Assembly: GCA_017440935.1 (NCBI GenBank) | Contig: JAFSAO010000022.1 | Coordinates: forward strand, 186,001 to 250,000 | Origin: Opitutales bacterium | Lineage (GTDB): Bacteria; Verrucomicrobiota; Verrucomicrobiia; Opitutales; UBA953 | Reading direction: 5' to 3' | DNA: 64,000 nt | In this document: piece by piece, positions 8,143-53,377 of the stretch | How positions within the stretch are numbered: position 1 is the stretch's first letter | Layout of the letters: every line of letters starts with the position of its first letter | The notes under the pieces: generated by a model | Databases searched by the model: none | The model's input: the letters and a program-made list of their open reading frames with translations, nothing else | What the model was told of the DNA's origin: nothing | Program-made: the position numbers and the translations under genes

Positions 8143-8175
8143 AATCTCCCACGGAGTCACAAAGCCACAAAGTTT
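8143..8175 (+). repeat. Short CACGGAGTCAC repeat remnant (family C)
   Basis: A run of near-heptad words (CCACGGAGTCACAAAGCC then ACAAAG) matches the longer copies at about 49610 and 49995, and inverted copies at about 53760 and 54255. It lies directly after the murC-murB stop. Function unknown. Confidence 0.6.
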
Positions 8176-8190
8176 TTTTAATTTGTGAAA

Positions 8191-8230: not shown

Positions 8231-8312
8231 AACCTTCAATTTTGGGGCAAATTTTCAGGAATGGATCCTGAGGGTCTCAAATCTCAAAAACTAAACTCAA
8301 TAAAACAACAAC

Positions 8313-9269
8313 ATGAACAAAACATTATCTGTTGCCCTGCTTGTTTTCGCGGGAACTGTCGGCGTGATAGCGGAGAGCGATATTAGGGATGATATCTCGG
8401 GATATGATTATAAGCAGACTCGCCATCTGAACTTCAACAACATGAGACAGGTGGGGACGAAAAATACCGCGTCGTGGACGCAAAACTGGAATTGGTCTAA
8501 TTTCCAGAAACTTGATCTCGGGCTGGACAACCGCTACGAGCTAACGTTCAAAATTTACGCAAATACGTTCAACGATACGGAAGATCCTATTTTTAACATT
8601 TATCTGGCGGGGAACAACAAGTCCATTCTCTACGGGAACTACATGGATCAGTATCACAACGGGGCGTATTATTTGGACGGATGTTCCGGTGTTTATAGCG
8701 TTAACCGAGATGTTGCCGGATTCGACAATGCCCCCGGAGCTTCGACTTGCATTCTTAGCTACGATATTCACTCGTTAGCAAGCGTCGTTTCGGAGGTTGG
8801 CGCGACACGAATGGGCGATGTCACCGGACAAGGCACAGAACTCAAAACCGGCTTCCACACCTACACGATCTTTATCGAAGCGTTTTCCGATACTTCCAAG
8901 CAGGACTTGATTCATTTTAAATACAGCGGAGCGAACAACGGGAACGCCGACGCATCGCATTCCTCCAGCTGGGGAATTCAAAATATATTTGGGATTGGTC
9001 ATAGTGAGCAACTGGATGCAGGCGTATTCTTTGCAGATGACGGAGCCTACGGAGACATTGTTCTCTCCAACTACTCCGGTGTCGACTTGACCCTTGTCAC
9101 GGAAAGTCGCACGCTGACGCCTCCGCCTGAACCTCCGGCACCGCCGGTTGTGCCGGAAGTGCCGGACGTGCCTGTTGAACCCAGCGTTCCCGAGCCGTCG
9201 GCGTTTGGTTTGCTCGCGGGCTTGGGTGCGATTGCGCTTGCGGCGTCTCGCCGCCGTCGTTCCCGCTAA
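8313..9269 (+). CDS. PEP-CTERM surface protein
   Basis: A secreted protein of 318 residues, presumably processed and anchored by an exosortase encoded elsewhere. An N-terminal signal (residues 1-20) ends before AES. The middle is a beta-rich region rich in Asn, Asp and aromatic residues with no enzyme signature I recognise; it could be a lectin-like jellyroll. A Pro/Glu/Val linker (about 268-292) precedes the tail VPEPSAFGLLAG, a hydrophobic helix and RRRR. Base composition is more AT-rich than the neighbouring murC-murB. The gene has its own promoter-like element and a strong terminator behind it, so it is probably a single-gene unit. Confidence 0.85.
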   Translation: MNKTLSVALLVFAGTVGVIAESDIRDDISGYDYKQTRHLNFNNMRQVGTKNTASWTQNWNWSNFQKLDLGLDNRYELTFKIYANTFNDTEDPIFNIYLAGNNKSILYGNYMDQYHNGAYYLDGCSGVYSVNRDVAGFDNAPGASTCILSYDIHSLASVVSEVGATRMGDVTGQGTELKTGFHTYTIFIEAFSDTSKQDLIHFKYSGANNGNADASHSSSWGIQNIFGIGHSEQLDAGVFFADDGAYGDIVLSNYSGVDLTLVTESRTLTPPPEPPAPPVVPEVPDVPVEPSVPEPSAFGLLAGLGAIALAASRRRRSR

Positions 9270-9358
9270 TTAAGCGAGATTGGTTTTAAGGTTTGTCGGG
9301 TTTTCCTTAAAAATCCGACTTCATATATATTATTGTAGATTAATGTTAGTATTAGTGG

Positions 9359-9397
9359 GCGCTTCCGAGAGTTACTCTCGGGAGCGCTTTTTTTTTT
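9359..9397. terminator. Bidirectional terminator between PEP-CTERM gene and ClC channel
   Basis: A 12-bp stem GCGCTTCCGAGA paired with TCTCGGGAGCGC (one G-U pair, loop GTTAC) is followed by about ten T. It lies between converging genes and should stop the plus-strand transcript. Confidence 0.85.
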
Positions 9398-9446
9398 AGA
9401 GAGAATGAATGTCGTTCCCGCGCGTTTCACGGGAGTCGCCGGAGAT

Positions 9447-11219
9447 TTAACGCACTTTTTCGCGCCGCATGATTTCGCCGAGCGCGAGGTAAAGGTCGGA
9501 GCGGTTAACGACTCCGAGAAGTTTTTTCGAGGTTTCGTCTTCAACGAGCGCGAGCGAATCCTCGTGTTTGCGGGAAGCGAAAATTTTCAGCGCATCGGGC
9601 AATTTCATTTCCGGCAAAAGCACGGGCAAATTGTTGCGCGAGACGTCGATGGCGATAATCGCATCGGCGAGTTCCTTGTTTTGCGCAAATTGCAAAATAT
9701 CCGAAGAGACGATGGCTCCGCGGTAGCTTTCGTCTTCGCCCGTGATGAAAATTGTCTGCGCCGGGTGGCGAATGAGGACTTTGGCGACGCGACCGAAATT
9801 GTCGTTCGGGCGGACGGTCGGCGGATTTTTCCGGGCGATTTCAATGAGGCGGACTGCCGAAAGCGGTTTGGAGAAAATGCTACGCGGACCGGAGGCGAGG
9901 GCACTGTGATACATGGATTCCGTGCGCAAAAGTCGCGCGAACCCGTGAGAAACGACAACACCGATGAGCAACGGGAACATCAGCGTTCCCGCGAGCGTAA
10001 ATTCGACAACGAGAAGCAGAGACGTCATTGGCGCGCTCGCCGCCGTCGTGAAAAACGCCGCCATGCCGACGAGTGAATACGCGATGGCGTGGTCGCCGGG
10101 AACGCCGAGTTTTGTCATCAGCGCGGAAAAAAGAAATCCGATAAATGTGCCGATGGTCAGGCTCGGTGTCAGCGCCCCGCCGACGGTTCCGACGCCGAAA
10201 ACGAAAGCGACGATTCCGACTTTGAGCGCGAGCAAAATTATCGCCTGCTCCGGCGAAAATTGTTCGGCAACGATCCCGCGAATCATCGTGTAGCCGTTTC
10301 CGGTCAATTCCGGATAAAAAATAGCCGCCACGCCGACGAGCGCTCCCGCGATTGCCAAGCGCACGGGAAGCCACGCGTGTTTTCCGTTCAGCAGTTTTCG
10401 TGCTTTTTTCAAAAGCCAAAGCCAGCCTTTTGCCGCGAGCGAGGCAATCGCGCCCAGCGCGATACAACTGACGGCGACAATCAGCTGATTGGAACCGATA
10501 ATGACGTTGCCCGAAACCTCATAAATCGGGTCGACTGCGCCGAGCAGGCTCAGCGTCAGATAGCCCGCACAACTCGCCACGAGTAGCGGCGCCAGCACGT
10601 CCAGCGTTAGCGCGCCGAGAACGATTTCTCCGACAAAAAGTCCGCCGGAAAGCGGCGTGTGAAAGGTCGCCGCCATTGCCGAAGCCGCCGCGCAAGCGAC
10701 AACGAGGCGGAGACGCGGAGCCGGTAAACTGAATTTCGAGCCGAGCCACGACGCGGCAACGGCGGAAGTCTGAATAAGCGGACCTTCCCGCCCGATTGCC
10801 GCGCCCGAGCCGATGGTAAAAACCGCAGAAAGGCTTCGCAGCAAACTCGGTTTCGGCGGAACGTAGCCGTTCCCGAGCGCAATGGCTTCCATGTATTCCG
10901 TCGCTCTCACGGGAACGAATTTGTGCATGAAAAGCAAGGTCGCTCCCGCCAAAAGTCCGCCGATTGCGGGAACGAGTATGCAATGCCATTTTTGAAGTGA
11001 GGCAAACGCGTCTACCTGCGAAAGGCCGTGCGTGAGCGTAAGTCCGTCCTGCACGCCGTGAACGCAAAGGCTGAAAACCAACGCCGTCAGCGCGCCGATA
11101 AATCCCGCGCCGAGCGCCCAGATGTAAATGAGTTGCGTGTCGCCGAGCCGAAGTTTTTCGCGCAAATTAAGCGCGAAGCGTATCCGGCGGGAGAATTTAT
11201 TTTCGGCGGAGGAAGACAT
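9447..11219 (-). CDS. ClC-family chloride channel/antiporter with C-terminal CBS domains
   Basis: An integral membrane protein of 590 residues that moves chloride, probably in exchange for protons. The selectivity-filter region GSGAAIGREGP is at residues 137-147, with E145 at the position of the gating glutamate, so an exchanger is more likely than a passive channel. About ten or more hydrophobic segments fill residues 30-430. From about 450 to the end are two CBS motifs, which in this family often bind adenine nucleotides and adjust gating. The gene is transcribed against its neighbour on the left. A palindromic repeat (about 11228-11325) separates it from the PTS gene behind it. Confidence 0.92.
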   Translation of the reverse strand: MSSSAENKFSRRIRFALNLREKLRLGDTQLIYIWALGAGFIGALTALVFSLCVHGVQDGLTLTHGLSQVDAFASLQKWHCILVPAIGGLLAGATLLFMHKFVPVRATEYMEAIALGNGYVPPKPSLLRSLSAVFTIGSGAAIGREGPLIQTSAVAASWLGSKFSLPAPRLRLVVACAAASAMAATFHTPLSGGLFVGEIVLGALTLDVLAPLLVASCAGYLTLSLLGAVDPIYEVSGNVIIGSNQLIVAVSCIALGAIASLAAKGWLWLLKKARKLLNGKHAWLPVRLAIAGALVGVAAIFYPELTGNGYTMIRGIVAEQFSPEQAIILLALKVGIVAFVFGVGTVGGALTPSLTIGTFIGFLFSALMTKLGVPGDHAIAYSLVGMAAFFTTAASAPMTSLLLVVEFTLAGTLMFPLLIGVVVSHGFARLLRTESMYHSALASGPRSIFSKPLSAVRLIEIARKNPPTVRPNDNFGRVAKVLIRHPAQTIFITGEDESYRGAIVSSDILQFAQNKELADAIIAIDVSRNNLPVLLPEMKLPDALKIFASRKHEDSLALVEDETSKKLLGVVNRSDLYLALGEIMRREKVR

Positions 11220-11227
11220 AGCGTTAG

Positions 11228-11325
11228 GAGTTCAAAATATCAGGCATCAAATATCAAGCGTCCACTTCAAAGAAACCTTAGCTCGTTGCTTGATGCCTGA
11301 TGCTCGACACTTGGGGCTTTCAAAA
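11228..11325. repeat. Imperfect palindrome of the ATCAAGC/GCTTGAT family
   Basis: ATATCAGGCATCAAATATCA near 11238 and GCTTGATGCCTGATGCTC near 11288 are arms of a long imperfect hairpin. Related palindromes lie at about 40085-40190 and 54880-55010, each between genes. No coding potential. Confidence 0.7.
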
Positions 11326-11336
11326 ATTATCAATTA

Positions 11337-11783
11337 CTATGAAATGAGGCTTTTCAGCTCGGCAAGAAGCGCGGCGGGATCCGGGACGCGCCCGTCGGGA
11401 GTGACGGTTTTCGTGTCTTTGTGCCAACGCAAAATTTTCTGCATGAGCAAAAGGTAATCGCGGATCATTGCTGCGGGAACGCCGAGGAGGAGGACGAGGT
11501 GGGCGCGGTTGTCCGCATCGTCCCACGGGATTCCGGCTTCGGAAACGCCGACGGCAATGCGGATTTCGTCGAGCGCGTCCGTGCGTCCGTGCGGGAGCGC
11601 GAGTCCGCGTCCGAGAAACGTGGACGAAGTGTGTTCGCGTTCGATTGCCGCCGCTTTCATGGCTTCAATGGCTTCGGGGCTTGCGGCTTGCTCTTTTTCA
11701 AAGGCGGAAAAAAGGGATTGGAGCGCATCGTCGCGGGACGCGTTCCCGCAGAGGAGGACAGGTTGTTCGAGGACGTTCGGCAT
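11337..11783 (-). CDS. PTS IIA-type phosphotransfer protein (PtsN/fructose-like)
   Basis: A 148-residue cytosolic protein of the EIIA fructose/nitrogen family, which accepts phosphate on a histidine from HPr or NPr. The active-site stretch GRGLALPHGRTD places the phosphorylated His at 65. The downstream VLLLGVPA and the ending LLAELKSLIS fit the fold. No sugar permease or HPr gene is nearby, so a regulatory PtsN-like role is as likely as sugar transport. It is transcribed away from prmB and lies on the same strand as the ClC gene. Confidence 0.85.
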   Translation of the reverse strand: MPNVLEQPVLLCGNASRDDALQSLFSAFEKEQAASPEAIEAMKAAAIEREHTSSTFLGRGLALPHGRTDALDEIRIAVGVSEAGIPWDDADNRAHLVLLLGVPAAMIRDYLLLMQKILRWHKDTKTVTPDGRVPDPAALLAELKSLIS

Positions 11784-11837
11784 AGTCTGGGAAAACGCCC
11801 GAAAAACTAACAGAAATTTGCCTCAGGCAAAAGAGAG

Positions 11838-12062
11838 AAACCACGAATGAACACAAATAAACACGAATTATTTTTTTTTGTTTGATATAGATGTAGCAGA
11901 TTCAAACAGATGAAAAACTTCGCGATTTTGCACGATTTATTTACCGCTAAGTAATGAAGGTAAAAAAACTTTATAGTAATTTCTGTAAAAAACATCTGAT
12001 TTCATCTGTTCAATCTGTGTAAAAAATTCGTGTTAATTTGCGGTTATTCGTGGTTATATTTC
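11838..12062. repeat. Nested intergenic palindrome (CACGAAT/ATTCGTG and CAGAT/ATCTG words)
   Basis: The arm at about 11841-11871 (AACCACGAATGAACAC onward) is matched by its inverted, slightly changed copy at about 12030-12058. Inside it, CAGATTCAAACAGATGAAA near 11899 is matched by TTTCATCTGTTCAATCTG near 12000. This fills most of the 286-bp gap between the PTS IIA gene and prmB. The outer arms recur singly at 14207-14243 and 46232-46272. Confidence 0.7.
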
Positions 12063-12069
12063 CTCTTTC

Positions 12070-13014
12070 ATGAAAAATCTCAAAAACGACGAAAACATTT
12101 TTGCGGGAACGGAAGTGCTGGTTACTTTGCGCGATTGGACGCGCTTTGCCGTTTCTCTGTTTTCAAAAAGCGGACTCTTTTTCGGGCAGGGCATGAGCAC
12201 GGCTTACGACGAAGCCGTTTATCTGCTTTGCCACACGCTCGGCTTGCCGACGGACGGCGGTGTGGAAACTTTTTTTGATGCAAAGCTGACGGCGCCGGAA
12301 ATTTCCGCCGTGAAAGACGTGCTTTTCCGCCGTGCGGAAGAACGCGTTCCCGCCGCCTATATCACGCGTGAAGCGTGGCTCGGGGATTTCCGTTTTTATG
12401 TGGACGAACGCACGATTGTGCCGCGCTCGTATTTCGTGGAAATGATTCCGGAAAAAATCCTGCCGTGGATTCCGGGAATGGATGCGGAGGCGGTCGAACG
12501 CGTTGCCGACGTTTGCACGGGCGGCGCGTCGATCGCGATTTTGCTCGCGCACGCGTTCCCGAACGCGCAGGTGGACGCTTGCGATATTTCCGATGCGGCG
12601 CTTGAAGTGGCGCACAAAAACGTTTCCGACTACGGTTTGGACGAACGCGTTTCGCTGTGGAAAAGCGATGTGCTCGACGGCGTTCCCGCGGACGATGCGA
12701 GCTACGACATCATCGTCAGCAACCCGCCTTATGAGCCGGAGGAACTGCGCGAAACGCTTCCGGAGGAATTTCGCCGCGAACCCGACAACGCGCTGTTTTC
12801 CGGAGCGGACGGACTGGACGTGATTCGTAAATTGCTCCCGCAGGCGGCGAAAAAACTCAAGCGCAACGGCGTGTTGCTCATCGAAGTCGGCGGCTTGCAG
12901 GACGCGCTCGCGGAAGCGTTCCCGCAACTCGAAATTTCGTGGTTGGAAACGGCGGACGGCTCGGACTGCATTTGCGCGATTTCCGCTTCGTCCCTGCGCG
13001 AAGTTTTTGCCTGA
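12070..13014 (+). CDS. prmB: Protein-(glutamine-N5) methyltransferase, PrmB type
   Basis: A SAM-dependent enzyme that methylates a glutamine, in PrmB that of ribosomal protein L3; the related PrmC acts on release factors. The 314-residue protein has motif I DVCTGGASIA at 147-156 and the catalytic NPPY at 218-221. The N-terminal domain with RTIVPRSYFVEMI near 114 resembles the PrmB version (RTLVPRS) more than PrmC. It starts a plus-strand pair with the MBL hydrolase, 14 bp apart. PrmC cannot be fully excluded without an alignment. Confidence 0.85.
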   Translation: MKNLKNDENIFAGTEVLVTLRDWTRFAVSLFSKSGLFFGQGMSTAYDEAVYLLCHTLGLPTDGGVETFFDAKLTAPEISAVKDVLFRRAEERVPAAYITREAWLGDFRFYVDERTIVPRSYFVEMIPEKILPWIPGMDAEAVERVADVCTGGASIAILLAHAFPNAQVDACDISDAALEVAHKNVSDYGLDERVSLWKSDVLDGVPADDASYDIIVSNPPYEPEELRETLPEEFRREPDNALFSGADGLDVIRKLLPQAAKKLKRNGVLLIEVGGLQDALAEAFPQLEISWLETADGSDCICAISASSLREVFA

Positions 13015-24320: not shown

Positions 24321-25205
24321 ATGAAAGTTTTGAGAGCCGAAAGCGCGGGTTTTTGTCGCGGCGTTGAGCGGGCGATTAATATCGTGCGCGATTATTTGAA
24401 AAAAGGACGCGCTCCCGTGTTTACGGACGGACCGCTCATTCACAATCGGCAAATGATGGCGGAACTTGAGGCGGAAGGCGTGCGCGAAGTCGGCGATTAC
24501 CGTTCCCGCTCAAAGTTGGATTTGAATCTTTCGCCGGAGGAAAAGGAAAACGCGGTCGTGATTGTCCGCGCGCACGGCGTTACGCCCGAGCGCCGGGAAT
24601 ACTTGAAAACGCTCGGCACGGAATTTCGCGATGCGACTTGCCCGGACGTCGGCGTAATCGCCGGGCGTGTTCGGCTTTGTGCCAAAAAAGGTTTTTCGAC
24701 GCTCGTTTTCGGCGATCCGAATCACCCGGAAGTCGTCGGGATTCTCGGCTATGCGGAAGGTCGCGGGTTTGCCGTGCGCACGGAAGCAGATTTGGCGGCG
24801 CTCCCGCCGCTCGGCGACAAAGTTTGCATGGTGTCTCAATCGACGATGTTTCCGGACGAGTTTGAAATTCTCGCGGAAAAAGTGCGGGAACGCTATCCCG
24901 ACGCGCAGATTTTCAATACCATTTGCGGGGCGACGCGTTCCCGCCAAGGTGATGTGGTTCGCCTCGCGGAGCAGGGTGCGGAGGCAATCGTCGTTATCGG
25001 CGGTCGCCACTCCGCAAACACCGTGAAGCTGGCAACGCTGGTCGAACGCCAGGGCTTGCCGTGCTACCATATCGAAACGTTGCGGGAACTCGATTTGGAG
25101 CAGATGAAACGCTACTCCGTAGTCGGCGTTACGGCGGGAGCGTCTACGCCGGGCTTCCTCATCGACGAAGTCTGCAATACGCTCGAAAACAGCAAGAATT
25201 ATTAA
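24321..25205 (+). CDS. ispH: 4-hydroxy-3-methylbut-2-enyl diphosphate reductase (IspH/LytB)
   Basis: The last enzyme of the non-mevalonate pathway, an iron-sulfur protein that makes IPP and DMAPP. The three cluster cysteines are C12 (FCRGVERAI), C107 (ATCPDV) and C202 (NTICGATRSRQ), and H41, H85 and H135-E137 (NHPE) match the substrate-binding residues of the E. coli enzyme. The length of 294 residues is normal. Its stop lies 21 bp before the AT-rich restriction-modification genes, marking the edge of an insertion. Confidence 0.96.
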   Translation: MKVLRAESAGFCRGVERAINIVRDYLKKGRAPVFTDGPLIHNRQMMAELEAEGVREVGDYRSRSKLDLNLSPEEKENAVVIVRAHGVTPERREYLKTLGTEFRDATCPDVGVIAGRVRLCAKKGFSTLVFGDPNHPEVVGILGYAEGRGFAVRTEADLAALPPLGDKVCMVSQSTMFPDEFEILAEKVRERYPDAQIFNTICGATRSRQGDVVRLAEQGAEAIVVIGGRHSANTVKLATLVERQGLPCYHIETLRELDLEQMKRYSVVGVTAGASTPGFLIDEVCNTLENSKNY

Positions 25206-25226: not shown

Positions 25227-26102
25227 ATGAATCATATAGATTTATGTTCTTTGATCAGAGAAAAATCCGTATTGAATTTTTCTGAAGCTAGCGATGCGCT
25301 ACAGCAGATATTGTTTGGTGCAAGCAAAGCCGATGTTTTGCCCCTATTAAAACAGATAGGAACTATACCTGAAGATATTCGGCACGATTCTTCGGAGGAG
25401 AAACTATACACGAAAGCATCAGATATTCTATTCGCCAAAGTGCTTAAGGAAATGAATTTTGACGCAGTAGTGTTAAGGGAACGGTCCAATTGTGCTGACA
25501 TTGTGGCGCAAAGCAAGTATCACAACTACTCTTTGGTGGGTGATGCAAAAGCGTTTAGGTTAAGCCGGACAGCAAAAAACGCGAAAGACTTTAAGGTCGA
25601 GTCCATGGTTCATTGGAAAGGAGACAAAGATTTTTCCGTATTGGTTTGCCCTTATTTTCAATATCCGAGGGAGAGCAGTCAGATTTACCGGGCGGCGCTT
25701 AGTGGTAACGTCGCTTTGTTTTCGTGGGAATACCTCTACATTATTCTTTGCGAGGATGTGAAAGAGAGCGCAGAGGTCGATTTACGGAGTCTATGGAATC
25801 AAAGTGATAATATCATGCAGGAGACAAAGATCGTGGACGAAAATAAGTGCTTCATTAGGCAACAAGATGAGAACCTAAGAAAAATACTTGAGATAACAGA
25901 GGAACAATTTATCTCTTATTTTGATGAAATAAAAGGGGCGGTTGTTTGTCGTGGTAATGAGGAGATTCATTACTATGAGTCAGAAATAGCGAGGATTCAG
26001 AATTTGAATAGGGCGGATGCGATTAAAGAGCTTCTTGCCTCTATGAAATTAGAATCGAAGATAAAAACTATTAAAAAATTTATAAATCAGGTTCAGGGAT
26101 GA
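25227..26102 (+). CDS. HindIII-family type II restriction endonuclease
   Basis: A 291-residue endonuclease that should cut AAGCTT, judging by its close resemblance to R.HindIII as I remember it. Shared stretches include IRHDSSEEKLYTKASDI at about 52-68, YSLVGDAKAFRLSRTAKN at 101-118, DFKV at 121-124 and LVCPYFQYP at 139-147. D106-x-K108 in GDAK is the expected metal-binding pair of the PD-(D/E)xK nuclease fold. The gene is far more AT-rich than its neighbours and has different codon use. The methyltransferase start overlaps its stop (ATGA), a compact two-gene unit. The recognition sequence is inferred from family. Confidence 0.85.
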   Translation: MNHIDLCSLIREKSVLNFSEASDALQQILFGASKADVLPLLKQIGTIPEDIRHDSSEEKLYTKASDILFAKVLKEMNFDAVVLRERSNCADIVAQSKYHNYSLVGDAKAFRLSRTAKNAKDFKVESMVHWKGDKDFSVLVCPYFQYPRESSQIYRAALSGNVALFSWEYLYIILCEDVKESAEVDLRSLWNQSDNIMQETKIVDENKCFIRQQDENLRKILEITEEQFISYFDEIKGAVVCRGNEEIHYYESEIARIQNLNRADAIKELLASMKLESKIKTIKKFINQVQG

Positions 26103-40084: not shown

Positions 40085-40190
40085 AGTTCAAAGCATCAAA
40101 TATCAAGCAACTACTTTAAAGTTTTTGCTGAAAGCAAAAACCTTCGCAATTTGCTTGAAGCGCGATGCCTGATACTTGGCGCTTATTGCT
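40085..40190. repeat. Imperfect palindrome of the ATCAAGC/GCTTGAT family
   Basis: CATCAAATATCAAGC near 40092 is answered by GCTTGAAGCGCGATGCCTGA near 40152, and CTTTAAAGTTTTTGCTGAAAGC in the middle forms an inner hairpin. Related to 11228-11325 and 54880-55010. It lies between the lipoprotein and nucleotidyltransferase genes. Confidence 0.65.
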
Positions 40191-40968
40191 TAAAGTCGCA
40201 CTGCGCCTGCTCGTATTCGGCGAGAGTCCCGAGGTCGCGCCACGTTCCCGCGTCGTCGATGACACCGCGAATTTCGCCGTTCCCGCGCGCGATAACGCGC
40301 AAAAACGCTTCGACGACGCTTTCGATTTTTCCTGCGGGAATTTCGTCAAAAAACTTTCGCGAAACGCAATAAATTCCCGTGAATCCGCAGCGCCGCGTTC
40401 CCGCGTTGCCGAGACGGTCGCGCAAATCGACGATGGTTCCGGGCGGGTTTTCGGAGTCCGAAAAATTTACGTTCCCGCGTTCGTTCGTGCGCAAAAGTAA
40501 GGTCGCGAGCGCGCGGGAACGCAGATGCGCCGCAACGAGTTTTTCCAAATCCAAATCCGCGAGAATGTCGCCGTTGTAAACGAGCAGATTTTCGTCGGAG
40601 CTATCGAGAAATGTTTCGATATTTTTCAGTCCGCCGCCGGTGTCGAGTAAAACGGGTTCGTGGACGAGTTCGACGGGAACGCCGCGATAATTTCCTCCCG
40701 GAAATTTTTCCGCGTAAACCTGCGCTGCGTGGTGTGTGTTGACGATGAAGCGCTTTACACCGAGAGTGATCAGCGAGTCCATCGCACGGCAAATCATCGG
40801 CTTCCCGCCGAGCGGCAACAGCGGCTTCGGACAATTTTCCGTCAGCGGGCGTAACCGCGTCCCCAGTCCCGCGCCCAGCAAAAACGCGGTGCGAATCAAA
40901 GGAGAAGCGATTTTTTTGTCGTTTTCTAAAAACGCGGTTGAGGAAATTTTCGTTGTATCCGAAGCCAT
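40183..40968 (-). CDS. Sugar-phosphate nucleotidyltransferase (MurU/RfbA-like)
   Basis: The enzyme should couple a sugar 1-phosphate to a nucleoside triphosphate. From ATG 40968 the protein has 261 residues; an ATG at 41016 is the alternative start. The signature LGAGLGTRLRPLTENCPKPL is at about 31-50, and YNGDILADLDLE near 148 carries the metal-binding Asp. The compact size with little C-terminal domain resembles MurNAc-1-phosphate uridylyltransferase (MurU) and related short enzymes, which would fit wall recycling, but the substrate cannot be fixed. The region upstream turns AT-rich abruptly. Confidence 0.85.
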   Translation of the reverse strand: MASDTTKISSTAFLENDKKIASPLIRTAFLLGAGLGTRLRPLTENCPKPLLPLGGKPMICRAMDSLITLGVKRFIVNTHHAAQVYAEKFPGGNYRGVPVELVHEPVLLDTGGGLKNIETFLDSSDENLLVYNGDILADLDLEKLVAAHLRSRALATLLLRTNERGNVNFSDSENPPGTIVDLRDRLGNAGTRRCGFTGIYCVSRKFFDEIPAGKIESVVEAFLRVIARGNGEIRGVIDDAGTWRDLGTLAEYEQAQCDFKQ

Positions 40969-41178
40969 ATTTCCAATTATCTCCGCAAACGTTTCTTTAT
41001 CCACAAATTTCCGCAACCTCCCGCAATTTTTTTCGGAAACGCAGTTTTGTTAGACGAAGCGGAGAAAACCCACGAAAAATTCGTGTGCAGTATATTGATT
41101 TTACACTAATAAGAAGGCATACTAGCACCCAGAAGAGGCTTGACCCATTTAGCAACTAACACAAACGAAGAAGTTTTG

Positions 41179-41289: not shown

Positions 41290-41364
41290 AAAGTCCCAGG
41301 GTGCGTATTTGGAAGAATTAATAAAAAATTGAACCGGTAAGATATTAGGTTGAGGAGTCCGGAT

Positions 41365-44300
41365 ATGGCAAAAAGTATAGTGTTTTTTGATACCGAGATA
41401 GGTGTTGATGACCAAAAAATACATGACATAGGAGCAGTACGTAGCAACAAGGGAACCTTGCATACGGCATCCGTGTCAGATTTTTGTGCATTTGCGGCGG
41501 ATGCAGACTTTTTGTGCGGGCACAATGTGGTGCATCACGATATGAAATATCTCGCGCCCGTTGTGAGCGGTAGAGTTCCGAAGAGAATCATAGACACGTT
41601 GTATTTGTCCCCTCTTCTATTCCCGAGGAGACCGTATCACAAGCTGGTGAAAAATGATAAGCTTCAAGCGGAGGAATTGAACAATCCTGTAAATGACAGC
41701 TTGAAATCACAGGCGCTTTTCTTTGATGAAGTAAATGCTTTTCATCAACTCTCATTCGGAAAGAAAAAGATATTCTGCGGGCTTCTTTACAGCTTTGAAG
41801 AATTTCAAGGCTTCTTTGATTATGTAGGGTTTAAACCTTGTGCAAACGAAATGGCACAGATGATTCTTGCTGAATATAAAGGCAAACTTTGTGCCAATGC
41901 CGATATTGATATTCTTGTTAAGCATCATGCGAAGGAGGTTGCCTATGCGCTCGCTTTGATCGGATGTGAAGATTCCTACTCCGTTACGCCTCCGTGGTTG
42001 CTTTACAATTTCCCGAAGATTGAGAATGTAATCAAGCTTTTGTGCAATACCCCTTGCGCGGATGGATGCGATTATTGCAGGAACGCACTTGACGTACATA
42101 AAGGACTCAAAAAGATATTTGGGTTTGATAATTTTCGGACGTATAATGAAGAGCCGCTTCAGGAAATGGCGGCGAGGGCCGCAATGGAAGGAAAATCTTT
42201 GTTGGCTGTGTTCCCGACCGGAGGTGGTAAATCCATCACATTCCAATTGCCGGCGTTGATGGCAGGGAAGGCTACGCACGGGTTGACGGTTGTCATTTCT
42301 CCTTTACAGTCCTTGATGAAGGATCAGGTGGACAACTTGTCTGCAAAGGGAATAGCGGATGCCGTTACGGTAAACGGCATGCTTGATCCTATTGAACGAA
42401 GGGATGCTCTTATGCGAGTCTCAAGCGGACAGGCTTCGATTCTTTATATCTCGCCCGAGCAGTTGCGTTCTAAAACCATAGAGCATCTCTTGATGTCGCG
42501 TAATATAGTGAGATTCGTAATTGACGAGGCTCACTGTTTTTCGGCGTGGGGACAAGATTTTAGAGTGGATTATCTCTATATCGGAGATTTCATCCGCAAA
42601 CTCCAAGAGGAAAAGAAAGCTGACAAAAAATCGATACCTGTATCTTGCTTTACCGCAACGGCAAAGCAGAAGGTTGTTACGGACATTTGTGATTATTTCA
42701 AGAAAAAGCTAGACTTGGATCTTGAAATATTCGCGTCCTCCGCGACGAGAAAAAATCTTCACTACACGGTTTTATACAAAGAAACCGATGAGGAAAAATA
42801 TAATGAGCTACGTAGGTTGATTGTGCAGAAAAACTGTCCGACGATTGTCTATGTTTCGAGAACCAAGCGCACGTTTGATCTTGCAGGCAAATTGACAAGC
42901 GACGGACTTAGGGCTCTTCCGTACAACGGAAAGTTGGATCCCAACGAAAAAATTACCAATCAAAACGCCTTTATGAATAACGAGGTGTCAATTATTGTGG
43001 CGACCTCGGCTTTTGGAATGGGTGTTGATAAGAGTGATGTAGGGCTTGTCGTTCACTATGACATTTCTGATTCTCTCGAAAATTATGTTCAGGAAGCGGG
43101 TAGGGCGGGACGAAATCCTGCCTTACAGGCTGATTGTTACGTCCTTTTCAACGACAATGATTTGGATAAGCATTTCATCCTTCTCAATCAAACTAAGTTG
43201 AGTATCAGTGAAATACAACAGGTGTGGAAAGCGATCAAAGAGCTGACGAAGAACCGCCCCAATGTTTGTTGTTCCGCTCTTGAAATTGCGCGTCAGGCTG
43301 GTTGGGTTGATTCTGCCGGAGCTGAAATGGAGACGCGTGTCCGAACCGCTGTGTCTGCGCTTGAAACTGCAGGGTATATTGTGCGAGGACGAAACGTTCC
43401 GAAAGTATATGCAACAAGTATTCGTGCAAAGAATATGAAGGAGGCATCCGATTGTATTTGCGACTCTGACCTGTTTACGGATGAACAAAAAAATACGGCG
43501 TTGCGCATTGTGAAATCTTTGATTTCAAATCGTAGTGTCGCAACGGCAGGAAACACAGATGCCGAATCTCGTGTAGACTATCTCGCTGATATTCTTGGAA
43601 TAAAGAAAGCGGCTGTAATTGAGTCGATAAATCTTATGCGTCAGGTCGGATTGCTTGAGGATTATAGTGATATGTCCGCATATATTTATGATTCCGGCGG
43701 TCAGAATAAATCGGTTCGTATTCTTGAGAGCTTTTCAGAACTTGAAAGATTTCTTCTTTTAAAGATCACGGATGCAGGCATCACCTTTGGATTTAAAGAA
43801 CTTAATGAAGAAGCACAAAACAAAGGCATTACTACCTCTAATGTGAAGCATATCAGAACGCTTCTTCACTATCTGACAATCAAAAACTATATAACGAAAG
43901 AAGAAAATAGAGATAGCGTCTTGGTGAATCTTGTTCCGTCGTTTGATCTTAAACGACTTATGAGCAGATTTGAGCGAAGAGTGGAGATTTGTCGTTTCAT
44001 CCTTGACGAACTTTATTCAAAAGTGCTCCCGTATGGTGGATCTGATACCGAAAAGAAACCTGTTGAGTTTTCTCTTGTGGGCTTGTTTAAGGACTATCAG
44101 GCGGTCCCGAGAATGAATTTTGACGGAATTCCTGTTTCTCTTTCTGATGTGGAGGATGCTCTTTTATATCTTTCTAAAATCGGCGCACTAAAGATCGAAG
44201 GCGGTTTCCTTGTTCTTTACAATAGAATGGAAATTAAGCGGCTTGTTAAGGATAACCGTATTAAATATAAGGTAGACGATTACCGTTTGCTTGATGAGTT

Positions 44301-46194
44301 TTACAAGCAAAAGATAAGGCAAATTCACATTGTCGGCGAATATGCGAACCTTATGGTTCGTGACTATGATGCTGCATTAAAATTTGTTCAAGACTACTTC
44401 AATATGGACTTCAAGAAGTTCATTGCGACCTATTTCAAAGACGATAGAGCAAAAGAAATTGAGCGTAATATCACGCCTGAAAAATACAACCGGCTCTTTG
44501 GTGCACTTTCAGATAAGCAATCCGAGATTATAAACGATGCGGCTTCTAAATATATCGTAGTCGCGGCAGGTCCCGGAAGCGGCAAGACAAGGGTGCTTGT
44601 GCACAAGCTCGCGTCTTTGCTTCTTCTTGAAGATGTAAAACACGATCAACTGTTGATGGTGACTTTTTCTCGTGCGGCGGCTACCGAATTCAAAAAGCGG
44701 TTGATCGGTTTGATCGGTAATGCGGCAAATTTCGTGGAAATCAAAACTTTCCACTCGTATTGCTTTGATCTTCTCGGAAGGCTCGGGACTTTGGACGCAT
44801 CAAAAAATGTCGTCAAGGATGCGGTCGAAAGGATTCGAAATGGCGAAGTTGAGCAAGGAAAGATTTCAAAAAGCGTTTTGGTTATCGATGAAGCTCAGGA
44901 CATGGATGAGCACGAATTTGAGCTCGTGAAGGCTCTTATGACAATCAATGATGAGATGCGAGTTGTTGCCGTTGGTGATGATGATCAGAACATTTATGAA
45001 TTTCGGGGAGCTAATTCCAAGCATCTCGGAGCTTTGATTAAAGATTACGGTGCTCGCAAGTATGAGATGACAACGAATTACAGAAGCAATGCAACCGTTG
45101 TTGATCTAGCAAATGCTTTTGTAAAATCAATTACAAATAGAATGAAATCTGCTCCGATTGAGGCTGGGACGGATAAATCCGGAGATGTGAAAATCACTCA
45201 TCACGCCTGCGCCAATATGGAAGAAGCTGTGGTTAATGACCTGATCGCAACATACAAAGCAGGCAAGGCGTGTGTGCTTACTAATACGAACGATGAAGCA
45301 CTTTGTATACTCGGGCTTTTGTTGAAGCACGGAAAGCGAGCAAGGCTCATTCAGTCTCTTGACGGATTTAGCCTTTACAACCTTCTTGAAATCCGCGTGT
45401 TCCTCAAATCCATAGATCGAAATCTTCATTCACCTGTTATATCGGACGAAATATGGAGGAATGCGAAGGAGAAGCTGTTCTCGAGTCGTTATCGAGACAG
45501 TGCCTGCATCGATAATGTAAGGCGGTTGATATCGGATTTCGAAGCAACCCATTCGGTGAAGTATCGTTCTGATTTTGAGGAATTTTTAAATGAATCGAAA
45601 TTCGAGGACTTTTACGACGCGCACGAGCAGGGAGTCATCTGTGTTTCGACCATTCATAAAGCGAAAGGCAGAGAGTTCGATAACGTGTATATGATGCTGA
45701 AAAACTCTGCAGGCAAGACCGATGCAGAGCGCAGGGCATTGTATGTTGGTATGACGAGGGCTAAGAGCAATCTTTACATCCATACAAATACAACATTGTT
45801 CGAGCGATACCGGATTAACGGAGTTCAGCACGTGAAAGATTGCGCGAAATACGGAGAACCGACAGGAATCATGCTTCAAATGACCCACAAGGATGTAGTC
45901 CTTAGTTTCTTTAAAGATAAGAGGGAGATCATATTCAACCTTAGAAGCGGCACAAAACTGAAGCTTGACGATGTATTTCTTATCTCCGAATTGGGCGGAC
46001 AAAATATTCGCGTTGCGAAATTCTCCAAAGCTTTCATAGCAGTTCTTAGAAACCTAAAGAGTAAAGGATATTCTCCTAAATCTGCCGAGGTGCGTTTTAT
46101 CGTCGCGTGGAAAGGCAAAGAGGATACGGAAGAAACACCGGTTGTTCTTGCGGATATTTATTTTGAAAAGGAACCGGTCAAATTAATCTTCTAA
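41365..46194 (+). CDS. Giant fusion: DEDD exonuclease-like, RecQ helicase and UvrD/Rep helicase domains
   Basis: A 1609-residue protein from ATG 41365 (GAGGAG ribosome site at about 41352; a TTG at 41350 is an alternative). Residues 5-170 resemble a DEDD 3'-5' exonuclease, with FFDTE and GHNVVHHD. A Cys-rich link (CNTPCADGCDYC) near 230 leads to a RecQ-type SF2 helicase: FPTGGGKS near 283, DEAHCFSAWG near 387 and QEAGRAGR near 575. Residues 600-1050 are unrecognised, perhaps winged-helix. A UvrD-type SF1 helicase follows: GPGSGKT near 1068, DEAQD near 1173, DDDQNIYEFRGA near 1205, THKAKG-like TIHKAKG near 1428 and VGMTRAKS near 1461. All key motifs are intact. The gene is AT-rich and lacks the CGGGAACG word, so it was probably acquired. 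A role in DNA repair or defence is inference. Confidence 0.88.
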   Translation: MAKSIVFFDTEIGVDDQKIHDIGAVRSNKGTLHTASVSDFCAFAADADFLCGHNVVHHDMKYLAPVVSGRVPKRIIDTLYLSPLLFPRRPYHKLVKNDKLQAEELNNPVNDSLKSQALFFDEVNAFHQLSFGKKKIFCGLLYSFEEFQGFFDYVGFKPCANEMAQMILAEYKGKLCANADIDILVKHHAKEVAYALALIGCEDSYSVTPPWLLYNFPKIENVIKLLCNTPCADGCDYCRNALDVHKGLKKIFGFDNFRTYNEEPLQEMAARAAMEGKSLLAVFPTGGGKSITFQLPALMAGKATHGLTVVISPLQSLMKDQVDNLSAKGIADAVTVNGMLDPIERRDALMRVSSGQASILYISPEQLRSKTIEHLLMSRNIVRFVIDEAHCFSAWGQDFRVDYLYIGDFIRKLQEEKKADKKSIPVSCFTATAKQKVVTDICDYFKKKLDLDLEIFASSATRKNLHYTVLYKETDEEKYNELRRLIVQKNCPTIVYVSRTKRTFDLAGKLTSDGLRALPYNGKLDPNEKITNQNAFMNNEVSIIVATSAFGMGVDKSDVGLVVHYDISDSLENYVQEAGRAGRNPALQADCYVLFNDNDLDKHFILLNQTKLSISEIQQVWKAIKELTKNRPNVCCSALEIARQAGWVDSAGAEMETRVRTAVSALETAGYIVRGRNVPKVYATSIRAKNMKEASDCICDSDLFTDEQKNTALRIVKSLISNRSVATAGNTDAESRVDYLADILGIKKAAVIESINLMRQVGLLEDYSDMSAYIYDSGGQNKSVRILESFSELERFLLLKITDAGITFGFKELNEEAQNKGITTSNVKHIRTLLHYLTIKNYITKEENRDSVLVNLVPSFDLKRLMSRFERRVEICRFILDELYSKVLPYGGSDTEKKPVEFSLVGLFKDYQAVPRMNFDGIPVSLSDVEDALLYLSKIGALKIEGGFLVLYNRMEIKRLVKDNRIKYKVDDYRLLDEFYKQKIRQIHIVGEYANLMVRDYDAALKFVQDYFNMDFKKFIATYFKDDRAKEIERNITPEKYNRLFGALSDKQSEIINDAASKYIVVAAGPGSGKTRVLVHKLASLLLLEDVKHDQLLMVTFSRAAATEFKKRLIGLIGNAANFVEIKTFHSYCFDLLGRLGTLDASKNVVKDAVERIRNGEVEQGKISKSVLVIDEAQDMDEHEFELVKALMTINDEMRVVAVGDDDQNIYEFRGANSKHLGALIKDYGARKYEMTTNYRSNATVVDLANAFVKSITNRMKSAPIEAGTDKSGDVKITHHACANMEEAVVNDLIATYKAGKACVLTNTNDEALCILGLLLKHGKRARLIQSLDGFSLYNLLEIRVFLKSIDRNLHSPVISDEIWRNAKEKLFSSRYRDSACIDNVRRLISDFEATHSVKYRSDFEEFLNESKFEDFYDAHEQGVICVSTIHKAKGREFDNVYMMLKNSAGKTDAERRALYVGMTRAKSNLYIHTNTTLFERYRINGVQHVKDCAKYGEPTGIMLQMTHKDVVLSFFKDKREIIFNLRSGTKLKLDDVFLISELGGQNIRVAKFSKAFIAVLRNLKSKGYSPKSAEVRFIVAWKGKEDTEETPVVLADIYFEKEPVKLIF

Positions 46195-46231
46195 TGCTCG
46201 GAGATTTGAAAGGTAAAAAGGCGAAATCAGC

Positions 46232-46272
46232 ACGAAAAATTCGTGCTAATTGGTGTTTATTGGTGGTTCCGG
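46232..46272. repeat. ATTCGTG...TTGGTGTTTATTGG repeat arm
   Basis: AATTCGTGCTAATTGGTG and GTTTATTGGTGGTTC form a copy of the arm seen at 12030-12058 and 14207-14243. It marks the right edge of the helicase insertion. Confidence 0.6.
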
Positions 46273-46276: not shown

Positions 46277-47188
46277 TTAGGAAAGTTCGCGGAACATGAG
46301 CGGGAAGGTGTCGGCGGCGGGAATGCGGGTCCAGAGCTCGAAGGCGAGGGCGCCTTGCCACGCGAGCATGGAGCGACCGTCGGCGGCGGGAAGGTTGCGT
46401 TCCCGTGCGGCGGCGACGAGTGCGCTTGTGTGCGAGCCGTAAGTCGTGTCATAAACCGCCATGCCGGCGCGCAGAAGTTCCGGCGGGAACGGCGACGGAT
46501 CATCGGGTTTTAAGCCGAGCGAAGTCGCATTGACAATCAGGGCGGGCTCTTCCGTTGTTAAATTTTGAATGTCGCAACTCGAGAGAAAGGAAATTTTTTC
46601 TTTCGGAAAAAACGCGCACAAATCCGCGATGAGCGTTTCGGCGCGTTCGCGGGAACGGTTGACGATGGTCAGCGAAGCGCAATTTTGCGCGAGTGCTGTC
46701 GCCGCAATTGCGCGTGCCGCGCCGCCGGCTCCGAGCAAGACAATGTGCGTTCCCGCGAGCGTTGCGCCGAGCTGCATTTCTGCGGCGCGGGCAAAGCCGC
46801 GACCGTCGGTGTTTTCGCCGCGCCAGCCGCCGAGGGCGTCGTCGCGCACGAGCGTATTTGCCGCGCCGATGATTTCGGCTTCGGGCGAAAGTTTTTTCAA
46901 CGCCGGGAGCACGGCGACTTTGTGCGGGATCGTCAGATTGAGACCGTGAAAGTTTTTTTCAAAAAACAGCGGGAGTGTTTCGGAGAGTTCTTCCGGCGCA
47001 ATCTCAAAGCGGAAGTAGCGATATTCGGTAAGCTCCGGGCGGCGTTCCCGCGCGGCGGCGAAAGCGGCGTTGTGCATTTTCGGCGAGAGCGAATGCGCAA
47101 TCGGTTTGCCGAGGACGGCGAAACTCGGTTCGCGACGTGTCCACGTGCGCAAATCGTCCAACGAATAAACTTTCTCGAAGCAAGCCAT
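46277..47188 (-). CDS. aroE: Shikimate dehydrogenase
   Basis: An NADPH-dependent step of aromatic amino acid synthesis. The 303-residue protein is read from ATG 47188 (MACFEKVYSLDDL); an ATG at 47230 is also possible. The shikimate-binding GKPIAHSLSPKMHNAAF is near 30-46, the catalytic Lys is in LTIPHKVAVLP near 90, NTLVRDD follows, and the nucleotide loop is GAGGAARAIAATAL. An N-terminal extension of about 25 residues before the fold is unusual for E. coli-type AroE but known in other lineages. It converges on the giant helicase gene. Confidence 0.93.
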   Translation of the reverse strand: MACFEKVYSLDDLRTWTRREPSFAVLGKPIAHSLSPKMHNAAFAAARERRPELTEYRYFRFEIAPEELSETLPLFFEKNFHGLNLTIPHKVAVLPALKKLSPEAEIIGAANTLVRDDALGGWRGENTDGRGFARAAEMQLGATLAGTHIVLLGAGGAARAIAATALAQNCASLTIVNRSRERAETLIADLCAFFPKEKISFLSSCDIQNLTTEEPALIVNATSLGLKPDDPSPFPPELLRAGMAVYDTTYGSHTSALVAAARERNLPAADGRSMLAWQGALAFELWTRIPAADTFPLMFRELS

Positions 47189-47363
47189 GCGCACATTAAA
47201 AAACAGAAATTTTACATCGGCAAATTTCAAATTGGAGATCGGGGCCGGGTAACAGTAGGCGTTATTCTTTGTTCGTTACTCTCTATCCATTAACGGGAAC
47301 CAACTTTAATTTTCGTTGACTTGTCGGGCGGGAGCGCATTTCATTAGCACTTCTTTTAGCCAC

Positions 47364-50680: not shown

Positions 50681-53377
50681 ATGAAAACAACCAAATTCCT
50701 TCTTCCTACCCTCATTGCCGCCGCCGCAATGACCGCTACTGCGTTCGCTACTGATTACACATGGGACAGTTCTCAAGACTACACGTTTACATGGGATTTT
50801 TCCCAGAGCAACACTCAAAATGGACAAACCGGGGTGCTCGGTGGAACTGTATCTAATACGTTTGTTACGGAAGTCGTTGATATTATTTCCTCGACCGCGA
50901 TTAAAAAAGGTGATTCCACCGGGCAATACTGGGAAACGGGGACAAATTCATTTTTCTACGATGCGCTTAATTTTGTGACAACGTCCGGGACAACTGCGTC
51001 GCTGACATTTACAGTCGATTATTACTACACAGGGGCGCAGTGGGGAGAAAACATCCTTCATATCGGAAAAGACGGGACGGGGATTGCACTTGGTCTCGCC
51101 AAGTCCGGCTATGTTTCCTTTGGGACAGGAACAGCTACGGATAATACGTTCGTGACGAGTGATATCCAACTAGAGGCAAATACTTGGACTACGATTTCTT
51201 GGACAATCTCGAACGGGGGGTGGAGTGCAACCGTCGGTGAATCGACAAGCGATACTACCTCTATCGGAAGTATCTCCTGGGATTCTTCCGCTGATGAGCG
51301 AAACAAGTATAGTATCGGTGTTAAGGCTCCTGGGTGGAACAGTGGGGCTACTGGTTTGAATGATTCAGGATGTAAAATCGCAAATCTTTCCGTTAGTTAT
51401 TCTGGGGTTACTGTAAGAGATTTGATTTGGGGAGGAGAAGATGTCGGGACCTGGACTGATGAGTCTTGGAATTCTGGGAGCGATACAGGAGTAGCTATCA
51501 GCGAAAATTCTAATGTAACATTTAGTAAAACTGTCGCAATGACCGCAGACACCGATGTCTCTCTGCCATCCGTGACGGTTGAGAAAGATGCAACGTTGAC
51601 TCTTGCCGGCGAGGGGATCGTCTCTGCATCCACGGTAACAGTAAACGGAAATCTTTCTGTTTCAACTGATTCGACACTGGTGTCAAACAACACTATTTCT
51701 CTTGCGGAAAGTTCGATTCTTTCAGGGGGCGGGAAGATTGACCTTGGGTCAGCAGGAGTGATAACCCTCAACGGAGCTGAATTAGATCTCTCTGACTCTG
51801 GCTTCTCGGATTGGTCTGGAACAATCGTCATCTCTGAGCGGGCATCGCTCACGGACTTTTCGTTCGATAAATATGTTACAAGTGGCTCCAAAGTTGAAGT
51901 GACGGGTCTCGCCGGATGGCTTAACTCATTCACTTCCACCCTTGGGGAGGTTGTTTTGACAGACTCCTCGTCAGATTCTGCGTTTAAAGTAACCAACGGG
52001 TCGTCTAAAGGAAAATATTCTTTTGCCGGAAAAATTTCAGGCGCTGGGACGTTTGAGCATGCGTGGACTGGTGGAACAGGAGGGTGCGAATACACTTTTT
52101 CTGGAGATATTTCCGAGTGGACAGGGGCGTTTAAGCACTCTGCTTCCGGAAAAACCAATAAGGTGATTTTTTCAGAAAATATTTTGTCGATTACTACCGG
52201 AATTTCTGTAGCGGCGGGGATTTTGGAGGTTGAATTTGGTAACGATGATGCCACATATTCAGGCGAGATTTCTGGAGAAACAGGCGCGAGTATGTCCCTT
52301 AGTACATCTGGTACGCTGACGATTGACGGCTCATTTGCCAATAAAGGGACGACGGTTTTGGCGTCTGGAACAATACTTTGGAAAGCCGAAAATACACTTG
52401 GAAATACGCACCATACAGTTTCTGTCGGTAGCGATGCGCTTCTCGACTTGACGCAAGGGAGTAGCCTCTTTTCCGGAGCTGAACACGTTTCCAATGGTCG
52501 CTTAACGGTTCAAGGGAAGGTGAAGGTCGCCAACACAAATTGGGAGACTGGGACTTCTTTTGGCAAGTTACAGCACAACTCCGACACAATTTCTGTTGAC
52601 GGCGGGGAAATTGTTTACACGTTGACTCACACAGCAAGTAGAGCTCTCAATTTCACGGCAAATGGAGGAAAGATTACGATTGAAGATGGACAGTCGGTTG
52701 TGTTTGAAGGAAACGAAAATGGAGACGCTTTTATCACGGATGCCTCTGGTGGAACGCTAGCGTTCAATACCGTTGGGGATGCCGAAGTTTCTGGCACAAG
52801 AGGGGTTATTCAAGGAGGCGCTGGTATCGAAAAGACTGGCGCGGGAATGCTTACTCTTTCCGGTAGCAACAGCTATTCCGGCGGAACGACGATTTCTGCG
52901 GGTAAGTTGGTCGCGGCGAATGCAAATGCGCTTGGTGATGCCGGCGGGGCGGTAACGATTTCCGGAGGTCAGTTGAGTGTTTCTCAAAATGTCACTCTTG
53001 CACAAACCGCGATTACGATTGTGCTCAATGATGCGTACAATACGGAGAATACGGAAAAGATAGCCGCGATTTCCGGTGCGGGAGCTTTTGCGGACGGAAC
53101 GACGATTACTCTTGATAAAGCAGCAGACGCTGTCGCTCTGTCGCTCGTGGCGGAGGCACCTCAAAAATATTCCTATCAGATTTTTGATCCTACGTCTTCC
53201 TTGGTCGGAACTGACTGGACATTTGAGCTCGGATCCGCGTGGGATGGTTGGGAGCAGTCGTATGATACGACCAGCGGGGTGCTCACACTTACGATTCCTG
53301 AGCCGTCGGCGTTCGGGTTGTTGGCGGGCGTGGGTGCGCTAGCGCTTGTTGTGGCGCGCCGCAAACGCCGCAAGTAA
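50681..53377 (+). CDS. Large PEP-CTERM surface protein with autotransporter-type beta-strand repeats
   Basis: A secreted protein of 898 residues. The signal peptide (1-23, LIAAAAMTATAFA) is followed by an N-terminal domain with lectin-like features (about 25-250), then a long Ser/Thr/Gly-rich beta-helical region. Near 712-745 the stretch GVIQGGAGIEKTGAGMLTLSGSNSYSGGTTI, which I split here as GIEKTGAGMLTLSG and NSYSGGTTISAG, is the classic autotransporter-associated repeat. The tail IPEPSAFGLLAGVGALALVV and RRKRRK is the sorting signal; there is no outer-membrane barrel. The gene is AT-richer than the chromosome, lacks the CGGGAACG word, and is flanked by repeat clusters. Likely an adhesin or coat protein. 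Confidence 0.85.
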   Translation: MKTTKFLLPTLIAAAAMTATAFATDYTWDSSQDYTFTWDFSQSNTQNGQTGVLGGTVSNTFVTEVVDIISSTAIKKGDSTGQYWETGTNSFFYDALNFVTTSGTTASLTFTVDYYYTGAQWGENILHIGKDGTGIALGLAKSGYVSFGTGTATDNTFVTSDIQLEANTWTTISWTISNGGWSATVGESTSDTTSIGSISWDSSADERNKYSIGVKAPGWNSGATGLNDSGCKIANLSVSYSGVTVRDLIWGGEDVGTWTDESWNSGSDTGVAISENSNVTFSKTVAMTADTDVSLPSVTVEKDATLTLAGEGIVSASTVTVNGNLSVSTDSTLVSNNTISLAESSILSGGGKIDLGSAGVITLNGAELDLSDSGFSDWSGTIVISERASLTDFSFDKYVTSGSKVEVTGLAGWLNSFTSTLGEVVLTDSSSDSAFKVTNGSSKGKYSFAGKISGAGTFEHAWTGGTGGCEYTFSGDISEWTGAFKHSASGKTNKVIFSENILSITTGISVAAGILEVEFGNDDATYSGEISGETGASMSLSTSGTLTIDGSFANKGTTVLASGTILWKAENTLGNTHHTVSVGSDALLDLTQGSSLFSGAEHVSNGRLTVQGKVKVANTNWETGTSFGKLQHNSDTISVDGGEIVYTLTHTASRALNFTANGGKITIEDGQSVVFEGNENGDAFITDASGGTLAFNTVGDAEVSGTRGVIQGGAGIEKTGAGMLTLSGSNSYSGGTTISAGKLVAANANALGDAGGAVTISGGQLSVSQNVTLAQTAITIVLNDAYNTENTEKIAAISGAGAFADGTTITLDKAADAVALSLVAEAPQKYSYQIFDPTSSLVGTDWTFELGSAWDGWEQSYDTTSGVLTLTIPEPSAFGLLAGVGALALVVARRKRRK

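What the first reader, a model, noticed from the sequence alone, without database searches (positions are those of the whole stretch)
41365..46194. Single protein joining an exonuclease-like domain, a RecQ helicase and a UvrD helicase
Two complete helicase motors of different superfamilies, one SF2 and one SF1A, follow an N-terminal DEDD exonuclease-like domain in one 1609-residue chain. All main ATPase motifs are intact. RecQ and Rep/UvrD both move 3' to 5', so the fused protein might process forks or recombination intermediates in a way separate enzymes do not. Similar long RecQ proteins may exist in other phyla; I know of no biochemical study. The gene seems transferred and stands alone, as some solitary defence genes do. 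The 450 residues between the motors are unrecognised.
Basis: partly seen in the sequence, partly recalled or inferred. Interest (0 to 1): 0.7.

Follow-up and report, generated by a model that had tools for sequence, protein, structure and literature searches.

The report
Mobile exonuclease–RecQ–UvrD fusion, probable anti-phage gene
A single bacterial protein joins a DNA-trimming enzyme to two different DNA-unwinding motors, is passed between distantly related gut bacteria, plasmids and phages, and probably attacks invading DNA, although nobody seems to have tested it.

Summary
ATG 41365 to stop 46194 encodes 1609 residues: DEDD-exonuclease fold (1-200), invariant four-cysteine site, RecQ core (244-610), tandem winged helices (about 611-962), and a compact UvrD/GajB-like motor (1045-1480). 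All four acidic exonuclease residues are invariant, but the motif-III His/Tyr of known DEDD enzymes is Asn (NNPxxD), so activity is likely, not shown. Full-length homologues (49-88% identity) occur in Bacillota, Bacteroidota, Fibrobacterota and Verrucomicrobiota; about 30-34% ones on proteobacterial and Campylobacterota plasmids, and seven viral contigs carry it. Carriage is patchy (16/387 genomes of the phylum), and the window copy nests within Bacillota. It is under strong purifying selection (dN/dS 0.11). It sits in a variable aroE-murU site that holds McrBC in one sister genome, McrBC plus this gene in another, a methyltransferase-like gene in a third and nothing in a fourth. A winged-helix companion gene adjoins it in about 11 other loci and also adjoins Druantia and Septu genes. 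Best reading: a solitary, mobile helicase-nuclease of the host-versus-foreign-DNA kind. Dense defence islands are the exception, and phage protection and biochemistry are untested. Databases annotate it as 'RecQ family helicase'; I found no functional study.

The parts
41352..41357 (+). Shine-Dalgarno-like gaggag, 7 bases before the ATG
   Evidence: sequence
41365..46194 (+). complete gene, 1609 aa exonuclease-RecQ-UvrD fusion
   Evidence: homologues
41365..41964 (+). DEDD exonuclease-fold domain, residues 1-200; D9, E11, D59, D111 invariant; NNPxxD in place of the DEDDh/DEDDy third motif
   Evidence: AlphaFold and PDB comparison; conservation
41890..42078 (+). putative metal site: C176, C231, C235, C238
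   Evidence: conserved in 55 aligned sequences; all four lost together in the Aliarcobacter homologue
42094..43194 (+). RecQ-type SF2 helicase core, residues 244-610
43195..44250 (+). tandem winged-helix region, residues 611-962
   Evidence: AlphaFold pLDDT 75; winged-helix matches
44251..44496 (+). helical connector, residues 963-1044, with conserved QIHIVGEYA and VxDYF stretches
44497..45804 (+). compact SF1A motor, residues 1045-1480; short 1B and 2B, collinear with GajB
45805..46191 (+). C-terminal domain, residues 1481-1609, unassigned
   Evidence: least conserved part
41071..41085 (+). left copy of the 15-base direct repeat CACGAAAAATTCGTG bounding the low-GC insert
   Evidence: 0.09 expected by chance
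46231..46245 (+). right copy of the same repeat
40183..41016 (-). left anchor of the variable site: nucleotidyltransferase (MurU-like)
46277..47230 (-). right anchor of the variable site: shikimate dehydrogenase (aroE)

Best explanation
A horizontally mobile, single-gene helicase-nuclease whose main role is probably to act against foreign or aberrant DNA such as phage or plasmid replication and recombination intermediates. Proposed mechanism, all inferred from domains: the RecQ core and winged-helix array engage forked or 3'-tailed DNA and unwind it; the compact GajB-like UvrD motor, also 3' to 5', pulls on or strips a second strand; the N-terminal DEDD exonuclease removes the 3' ends that are exposed, so the intermediate is destroyed instead of completed. 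Shown here: domain order, intact motifs, exonuclease fold, patchy transfer, purifying selection on every domain, carriage by mobile elements, a variable site shared with restriction genes, and a companion gene shared with Septu and Druantia. Not shown: any enzymatic activity, polarity, target choice or phage protection.
For: Patchy: 9/273 genomes of the order, 16/387 of the phylum, 2/8 of the genus. Window copy nested in Bacillota, 100% SH-aLRT, quick tree; GC3 0.44 against mostly 0.55-0.67 for the other long genes. The aroE-murU site holds the fusion here; the fusion with McrBC and a DUF4143 ATPase in G005/L010; McrBC in G003; a methyltransferase-like gene in G001; nothing in G006. Viral contigs: beside AlwI plus D12 methylase and serine recombinases (L139), type IIG (L142), type III restriction (L144), a phage integrase (L145). 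Plasmids: near type I restriction and CRISPR I-D. PADLOC families matched at 1e-15: 150 by 111 nearest neighbours, 24 by 111 farther genes. The companion adjoins the fusion in about 11 loci, mostly within 60 bases, and also Septu (L153) and DruE (L154). dN/dS 0.107 overall, 0.106 exonuclease, 0.074 RecQ, 0.086 UvrD.
Against: Restriction-gene homologues, sought with 11 query proteins, lie in only 3 of 75 chromosomal loci, so a defence island is not the rule. PADLOC counts are of redundant families, not genes. The gene has no full-length match in PADLOC; matches cover single modules. The companion is absent from this genome and from most loci. The closest relative carries a one-base frameshift, which may be decay or an assembly error. 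Active-site Asn may mean a weak or dead nuclease.
Confidence: 0.55

Rival explanations
1. An accessory DNA repair or fork-restart enzyme, with no special role against foreign DNA. The exonuclease, RecQ and UvrD parts act on the cell's own stalled forks, as RecQ, UvrD and DinG do.
For: All three modules belong to families with repair roles. Many chromosomal homologues sit among ordinary genes. S. aureus DinG, the nearest exonuclease structure, is linked to mitomycin C damage (PMC12345164). RNase HI genes lie close by in L161, L163 and L121.
Against: Present in about 4% of genomes of the phylum, moves between phyla, and this genome keeps its own RecQ. The occupied site is a variable restriction-gene site.
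Confidence: 0.27
2. A gene that serves the mobile elements: it helps plasmids, prophages or integrative elements replicate, recombine or integrate, or counters host defence.
For: On plasmids, in one case next to ParA/ParB, and next to integrases or serine recombinases.
Against: Most copies found are chromosomal with no recombinase recognised nearby. In the window it is alone between housekeeping genes with no mobility gene, and it stays under strong constraint there.
Confidence: 0.13
3. The exonuclease fold is a dead or sensing domain that binds 3' ends, and the protein is only a double translocase (this cuts across the other readings).
For: Known DEDD enzymes have His or Tyr in motif III; here both candidate positions (106, 107) are Asn.
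Against: The four acidic residues and H92 are invariant in 55 sequences, the acidic residues also at about 30% identity, and the domain is as constrained as the motors.
Confidence: 0.25

Closest known systems
'RecQ family ATP-dependent DNA helicase', long form of 1600-1760 aa (RefSeq name, e.g. WP_022275194.1)
   Same: Same full-length architecture, 57% identity over 99% of the query
   Different: Annotation only; no function or context described
Human WRN
   Same: N-terminal 3'-5' exonuclease followed by a RecQ helicase
   Different: WRN has a DEDDy exonuclease, an RQC domain and HRDC, and no UvrD motor (general knowledge); here NNPxxD and a UvrD motor
S. aureus DinG (PMC12345164)
   Same: DEDD exonuclease fused to a helicase; closest solved fold to residues 1-242
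   Different: DEDDh active site and a single 5'-3' XPD-like motor
Gabija GajB
   Same: Compact UvrD-like motor, collinear over 1172-1479
   Different: GajB is separate and works with GajA; here fused to RecQ and exonuclease, with no GajA-like gene recognised beside it
PsyrTA / RqlHI and DpdF
   Same: RecQ-like helicase cores used in defence (PADLOC matches)
   Different: No exonuclease or UvrD module in the matched models; a different partner
Hna (PMC13381803)
   Same: Single-gene helicase with 3'-5' ssDNA exonuclease that protects by abortive infection
   Different: No homology tested here; analogy of function only

Membership tests
RecQ helicase family | Score above the curated RecQ subfamily cut-off | tested here: met
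   TIGR00614 277 bits against 219.8; equivalog TIGR01389 311 against 640 not reached
RecQ helicase family | Walker A, DEAH and aromatic-rich loop | tested here: met
   TGGGKS, DEAHCFSAWGQDFR (sequence)
RecQ helicase family | Four-Cys zinc domain after the motor | tested here: not met
   No conserved Cys at 611-1040; the invariant Cys set lies before the motor
RecQ helicase family | RQC winged helix and HRDC | tested here: inconclusive
   Winged helices present, not assignable to RQC; HRDC not recognised
DEDD exonuclease superfamily | DnaQ/RNase H-like fold | tested here: met
   Z 13.3 to SaDinG, about 11 to DnaQ, Cap18 and ExoI
DEDD exonuclease superfamily | Four catalytic acidic residues | tested here: met
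   D9, E11, D59, D111 invariant in 55 sequences
DEDDh / DEDDy subclass | His (D-5) or Tyr (D-4) in motif III | tested here: not met
   N106 in 54 of 55 and N107 in 55 of 55
UvrD/Rep SF1A helicases | SF1A motifs I-VI | tested here: met
   Pfam UvrD-helicase 1.6e-35, UvrD_C 6.3e-21
UvrD/Rep SF1A helicases | 1B and 2B subdomains of full size | tested here: not met
   About 85 residues shorter than E. coli UvrD at each place in the phmmer alignment
Gabija | GajA partner next to GajB | tested here: not met
   The window neighbours are a nucleotidyltransferase and aroE
Anti-phage defence system | Protects a host against phage | not testable with these tools
   needs an experiment
Anti-phage defence system | Consistent location in defence islands | tested here: inconclusive
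   Variable restriction-gene site in this genus and on several mobile elements, but 3 of 75 chromosomal loci by homologue search

The most novel reading that the evidence does not exclude
A widespread, so far undescribed family of single-protein immune effectors: two 3'-5' motors of different superfamilies and a DEDD exonuclease with a new Asn-type active site on one chain, with an optional winged-helix adaptor that is exchanged between this family, Septu and Druantia.
Probability: 0.3. Interest if true: 0.75.

Novelty: new variant of a known kind. Interest (0 to 1): 0.52.

Why it matters
If it is a defence enzyme, it would be a one-gene RecBCD-like destroyer found in many gut bacteria and missed because it is filed as a RecQ helicase. 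Either way it lets one ask how two motors of the same polarity and different superfamilies share one DNA, and whether a DEDD exonuclease can work with Asn in place of His or Tyr. The companion protein, adjoining Septu, Druantia and this family, may be a shared adaptor or regulator.

Tried and rejected
Two genes misread as one by frameshift: rejected, 54 homologues of full length. Dead relic: rejected for the window copy, dN/dS 0.107. Only RecQ of the genome: rejected, a 716-aa RecQ lies on C7. Companion decayed in the window flanks: no trace and none in the genome. Rule-like presence in restriction islands: not supported. Profile search of exonuclease rows against PDB sequences found nothing relevant; the fold was needed. 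The middle-model search gave only winged-helix-level matches, Z up to 9. Paper searches found no study of this architecture; subscription journals are mostly not held. Metagenomes were not scanned.

Full report
Observation. The gene is real and complete: ATG 41365 to TAA 46194, 1609 residues, with a Shine-Dalgarno sequence. Pfam and NCBIfam find the RecQ and UvrD parts. The genome (1.84 Mb, 22 contigs) also has an ordinary RecQ on contig 7, so the fusion is an extra.

N-terminal domain. It has no Pfam match, but an AlphaFold model from 41 aligned homologues reaches pLDDT 87 and pTM 0.86. Its best solved match is the exonuclease region of S. aureus DinG (Foldseek E 3.9e-4; Z 13.3 over 214 residues), with DnaQ, Cap18, ExoI, TREX-like and DNA polymerase exonucleases at Z 10-12. 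D9, E11, D59 and D111 are invariant in 55 sequences and kept in proteobacterial homologues at about 30% identity. SaDinG uses D10, E12, D95, H149 and D154 (PMC12345164). The position of H149 (D minus 5) is N106 here, and the position of the DEDDy tyrosine (D minus 4) is N107; both are Asn throughout apart from one Ser at 106. Motif II, GHNVVHHDMKYL, resembles the family-B polymerase form GYNxxxFDxPYL (own knowledge). So the fold is established, and activity is probable but not shown. C176, C231, C235 and C238 are conserved together and are lost together in the Aliarcobacter homologue, which suggests one metal site.

Middle region. An AlphaFold model of 596-1045 (pLDDT 75, pTM 0.49) shows repeated helix-helix-strand units; the structural matches are winged helices (RPC62, PadR, MecI, cohesin and ORC winged helices). 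Their relative placement is not reliable.

UvrD part. K1074 to motif II (D1175) spans 101 residues. In the alignment to E. coli UvrD about 85 residues are missing at the 1B place and about 85 at the 2B place, while GajB aligns end to end (128-428 of the 436-residue query with 164-472).

Distribution. A scan of 84,980 species genomes gave 75 loci, nearly all from gut or rumen Bacillota, Bacteroidota and Fibrobacterota plus one Opitutales genome. The scan favours close relatives. Plasmids of Bacteroides, Aliarcobacter, Cereibacter, Rhizobium, Thiothrix and Allochromatium carry homologues. An exonuclease-domain profile finds 9 of 273 genomes of the order and 16 of 387 of the phylum, nearly all within reading frames of about 1500-1800 codons, so the fused form is the usual state.

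Transfer. The gene has GC 42.8% against 52.6% for the window and GC3 0.44 against mostly 0.55-0.67. A quick maximum-likelihood tree puts it and the one other Opitutales copy inside Bacillota with 100% SH-aLRT (no bootstrap). Both lie at the same site, and their synonymous divergence (0.57) is near that of murU (0.52) and above aroE (0.39), which suggests entry before these species split. dN/dS is 0.107, lower than aroE 0.27 and murU 0.24.

Site. In this genus the aroE-murU interval holds the fusion (window), the fusion with McrB, McrC and a DUF4143 ATPase (L010/L114), McrB and McrC (L110), a methyltransferase-like protein with an NPPY motif (L111; only a weak TIGR02987 match), or nothing (L112). 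A 15-base direct repeat bounds the low-GC insert in the window, and a 105-base repeat that includes the aroE 3' end bounds it in L010.

Context elsewhere. On viral or prophage contigs it lies beside AlwI restriction with a D12 methylase and serine recombinases (L139), a type IIG enzyme (L142), type III restriction (L144) and a phage integrase (L145). Plasmid copies lie near type I restriction (L120) and type I-D CRISPR (L119). By contrast, 11 restriction-related query proteins find homologues in only 3 of 75 chromosomal loci. The PADLOC tally, 150 families for nearest against 24 for farther neighbours, points to enrichment but counts redundant families.

Companion. A gene for a 110-340-residue protein, with an N-terminal AKxxIDxLANGINP motif and winged-helix-like repeats, adjoins the fusion in ten chromosomal loci, mostly within 60 bases, and divergently in viral contig L141. 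It has no Pfam or NCBIfam match apart from one weak chance hit. Relatives occur in L153, between Septu PtuA/PtuB and a GajB-like helicase, and in L154, directly after DruE. Two independent known defence systems beside the same companion is the best single hint that the family works in defence.

Mechanism and verdict. A mobile, usually solitary helicase-nuclease that most likely destroys intermediates of foreign DNA is favoured at 0.55 over repair (0.27) and service to mobile elements (0.13); the dead-exonuclease question (0.25) cuts across these. The architecture itself is already in the databases under a generic name. I found no paper that studies it in the held library, which lacks most subscription journals, so I rate it a new variant of a known kind.

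Noticed in passing
window 25227-26102 (+), with 24321-25205 (+) before it: Low-GC3 gene (0.418) that by eye resembles a HindIII-type restriction endonuclease, after a 294-aa gene that might be its methylase; a second possible acquired restriction locus.
   Followed up: no
window 50681-53377 (+): 898-aa autotransporter-like repeat protein with signal peptide and PEP-CTERM-like end (PEPSAFGLLAGVGALALVVARRKRRK); low GC3 0.461.
   Followed up: no
L053:5261-6277, L011:1782-2717, L141:6846-7628 (-), L153:2443-3177, L154:10909-11463: Undescribed winged-helix companion family beside the fusion, Septu and Druantia; it may be a shared adaptor.
   Followed up: partly
L161:5888-6412 (-), L163:5804-6397 (+), L121:18674-19153 (-): RNase HI genes close to the fusion in three diverged homologue loci.
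   Followed up: no
L010:7163-7756 / 7753-11970: One-base deletion splits the closest relative of the gene after about residue 186; decay or assembly error.
   Followed up: partly
L010:6282-6386 and 12025-12129: 105-base direct repeat that duplicates the aroE 3' end on both sides of the fusion gene, as after a recombination or integration event.
   Followed up: partly
L120:25611-26228 and L119:18658-19239: Separate genes annotated '3'-5' exonuclease' also lie within about 10 kb of the fusion in Allochromatium and Thiothrix plasmids.
   Followed up: no
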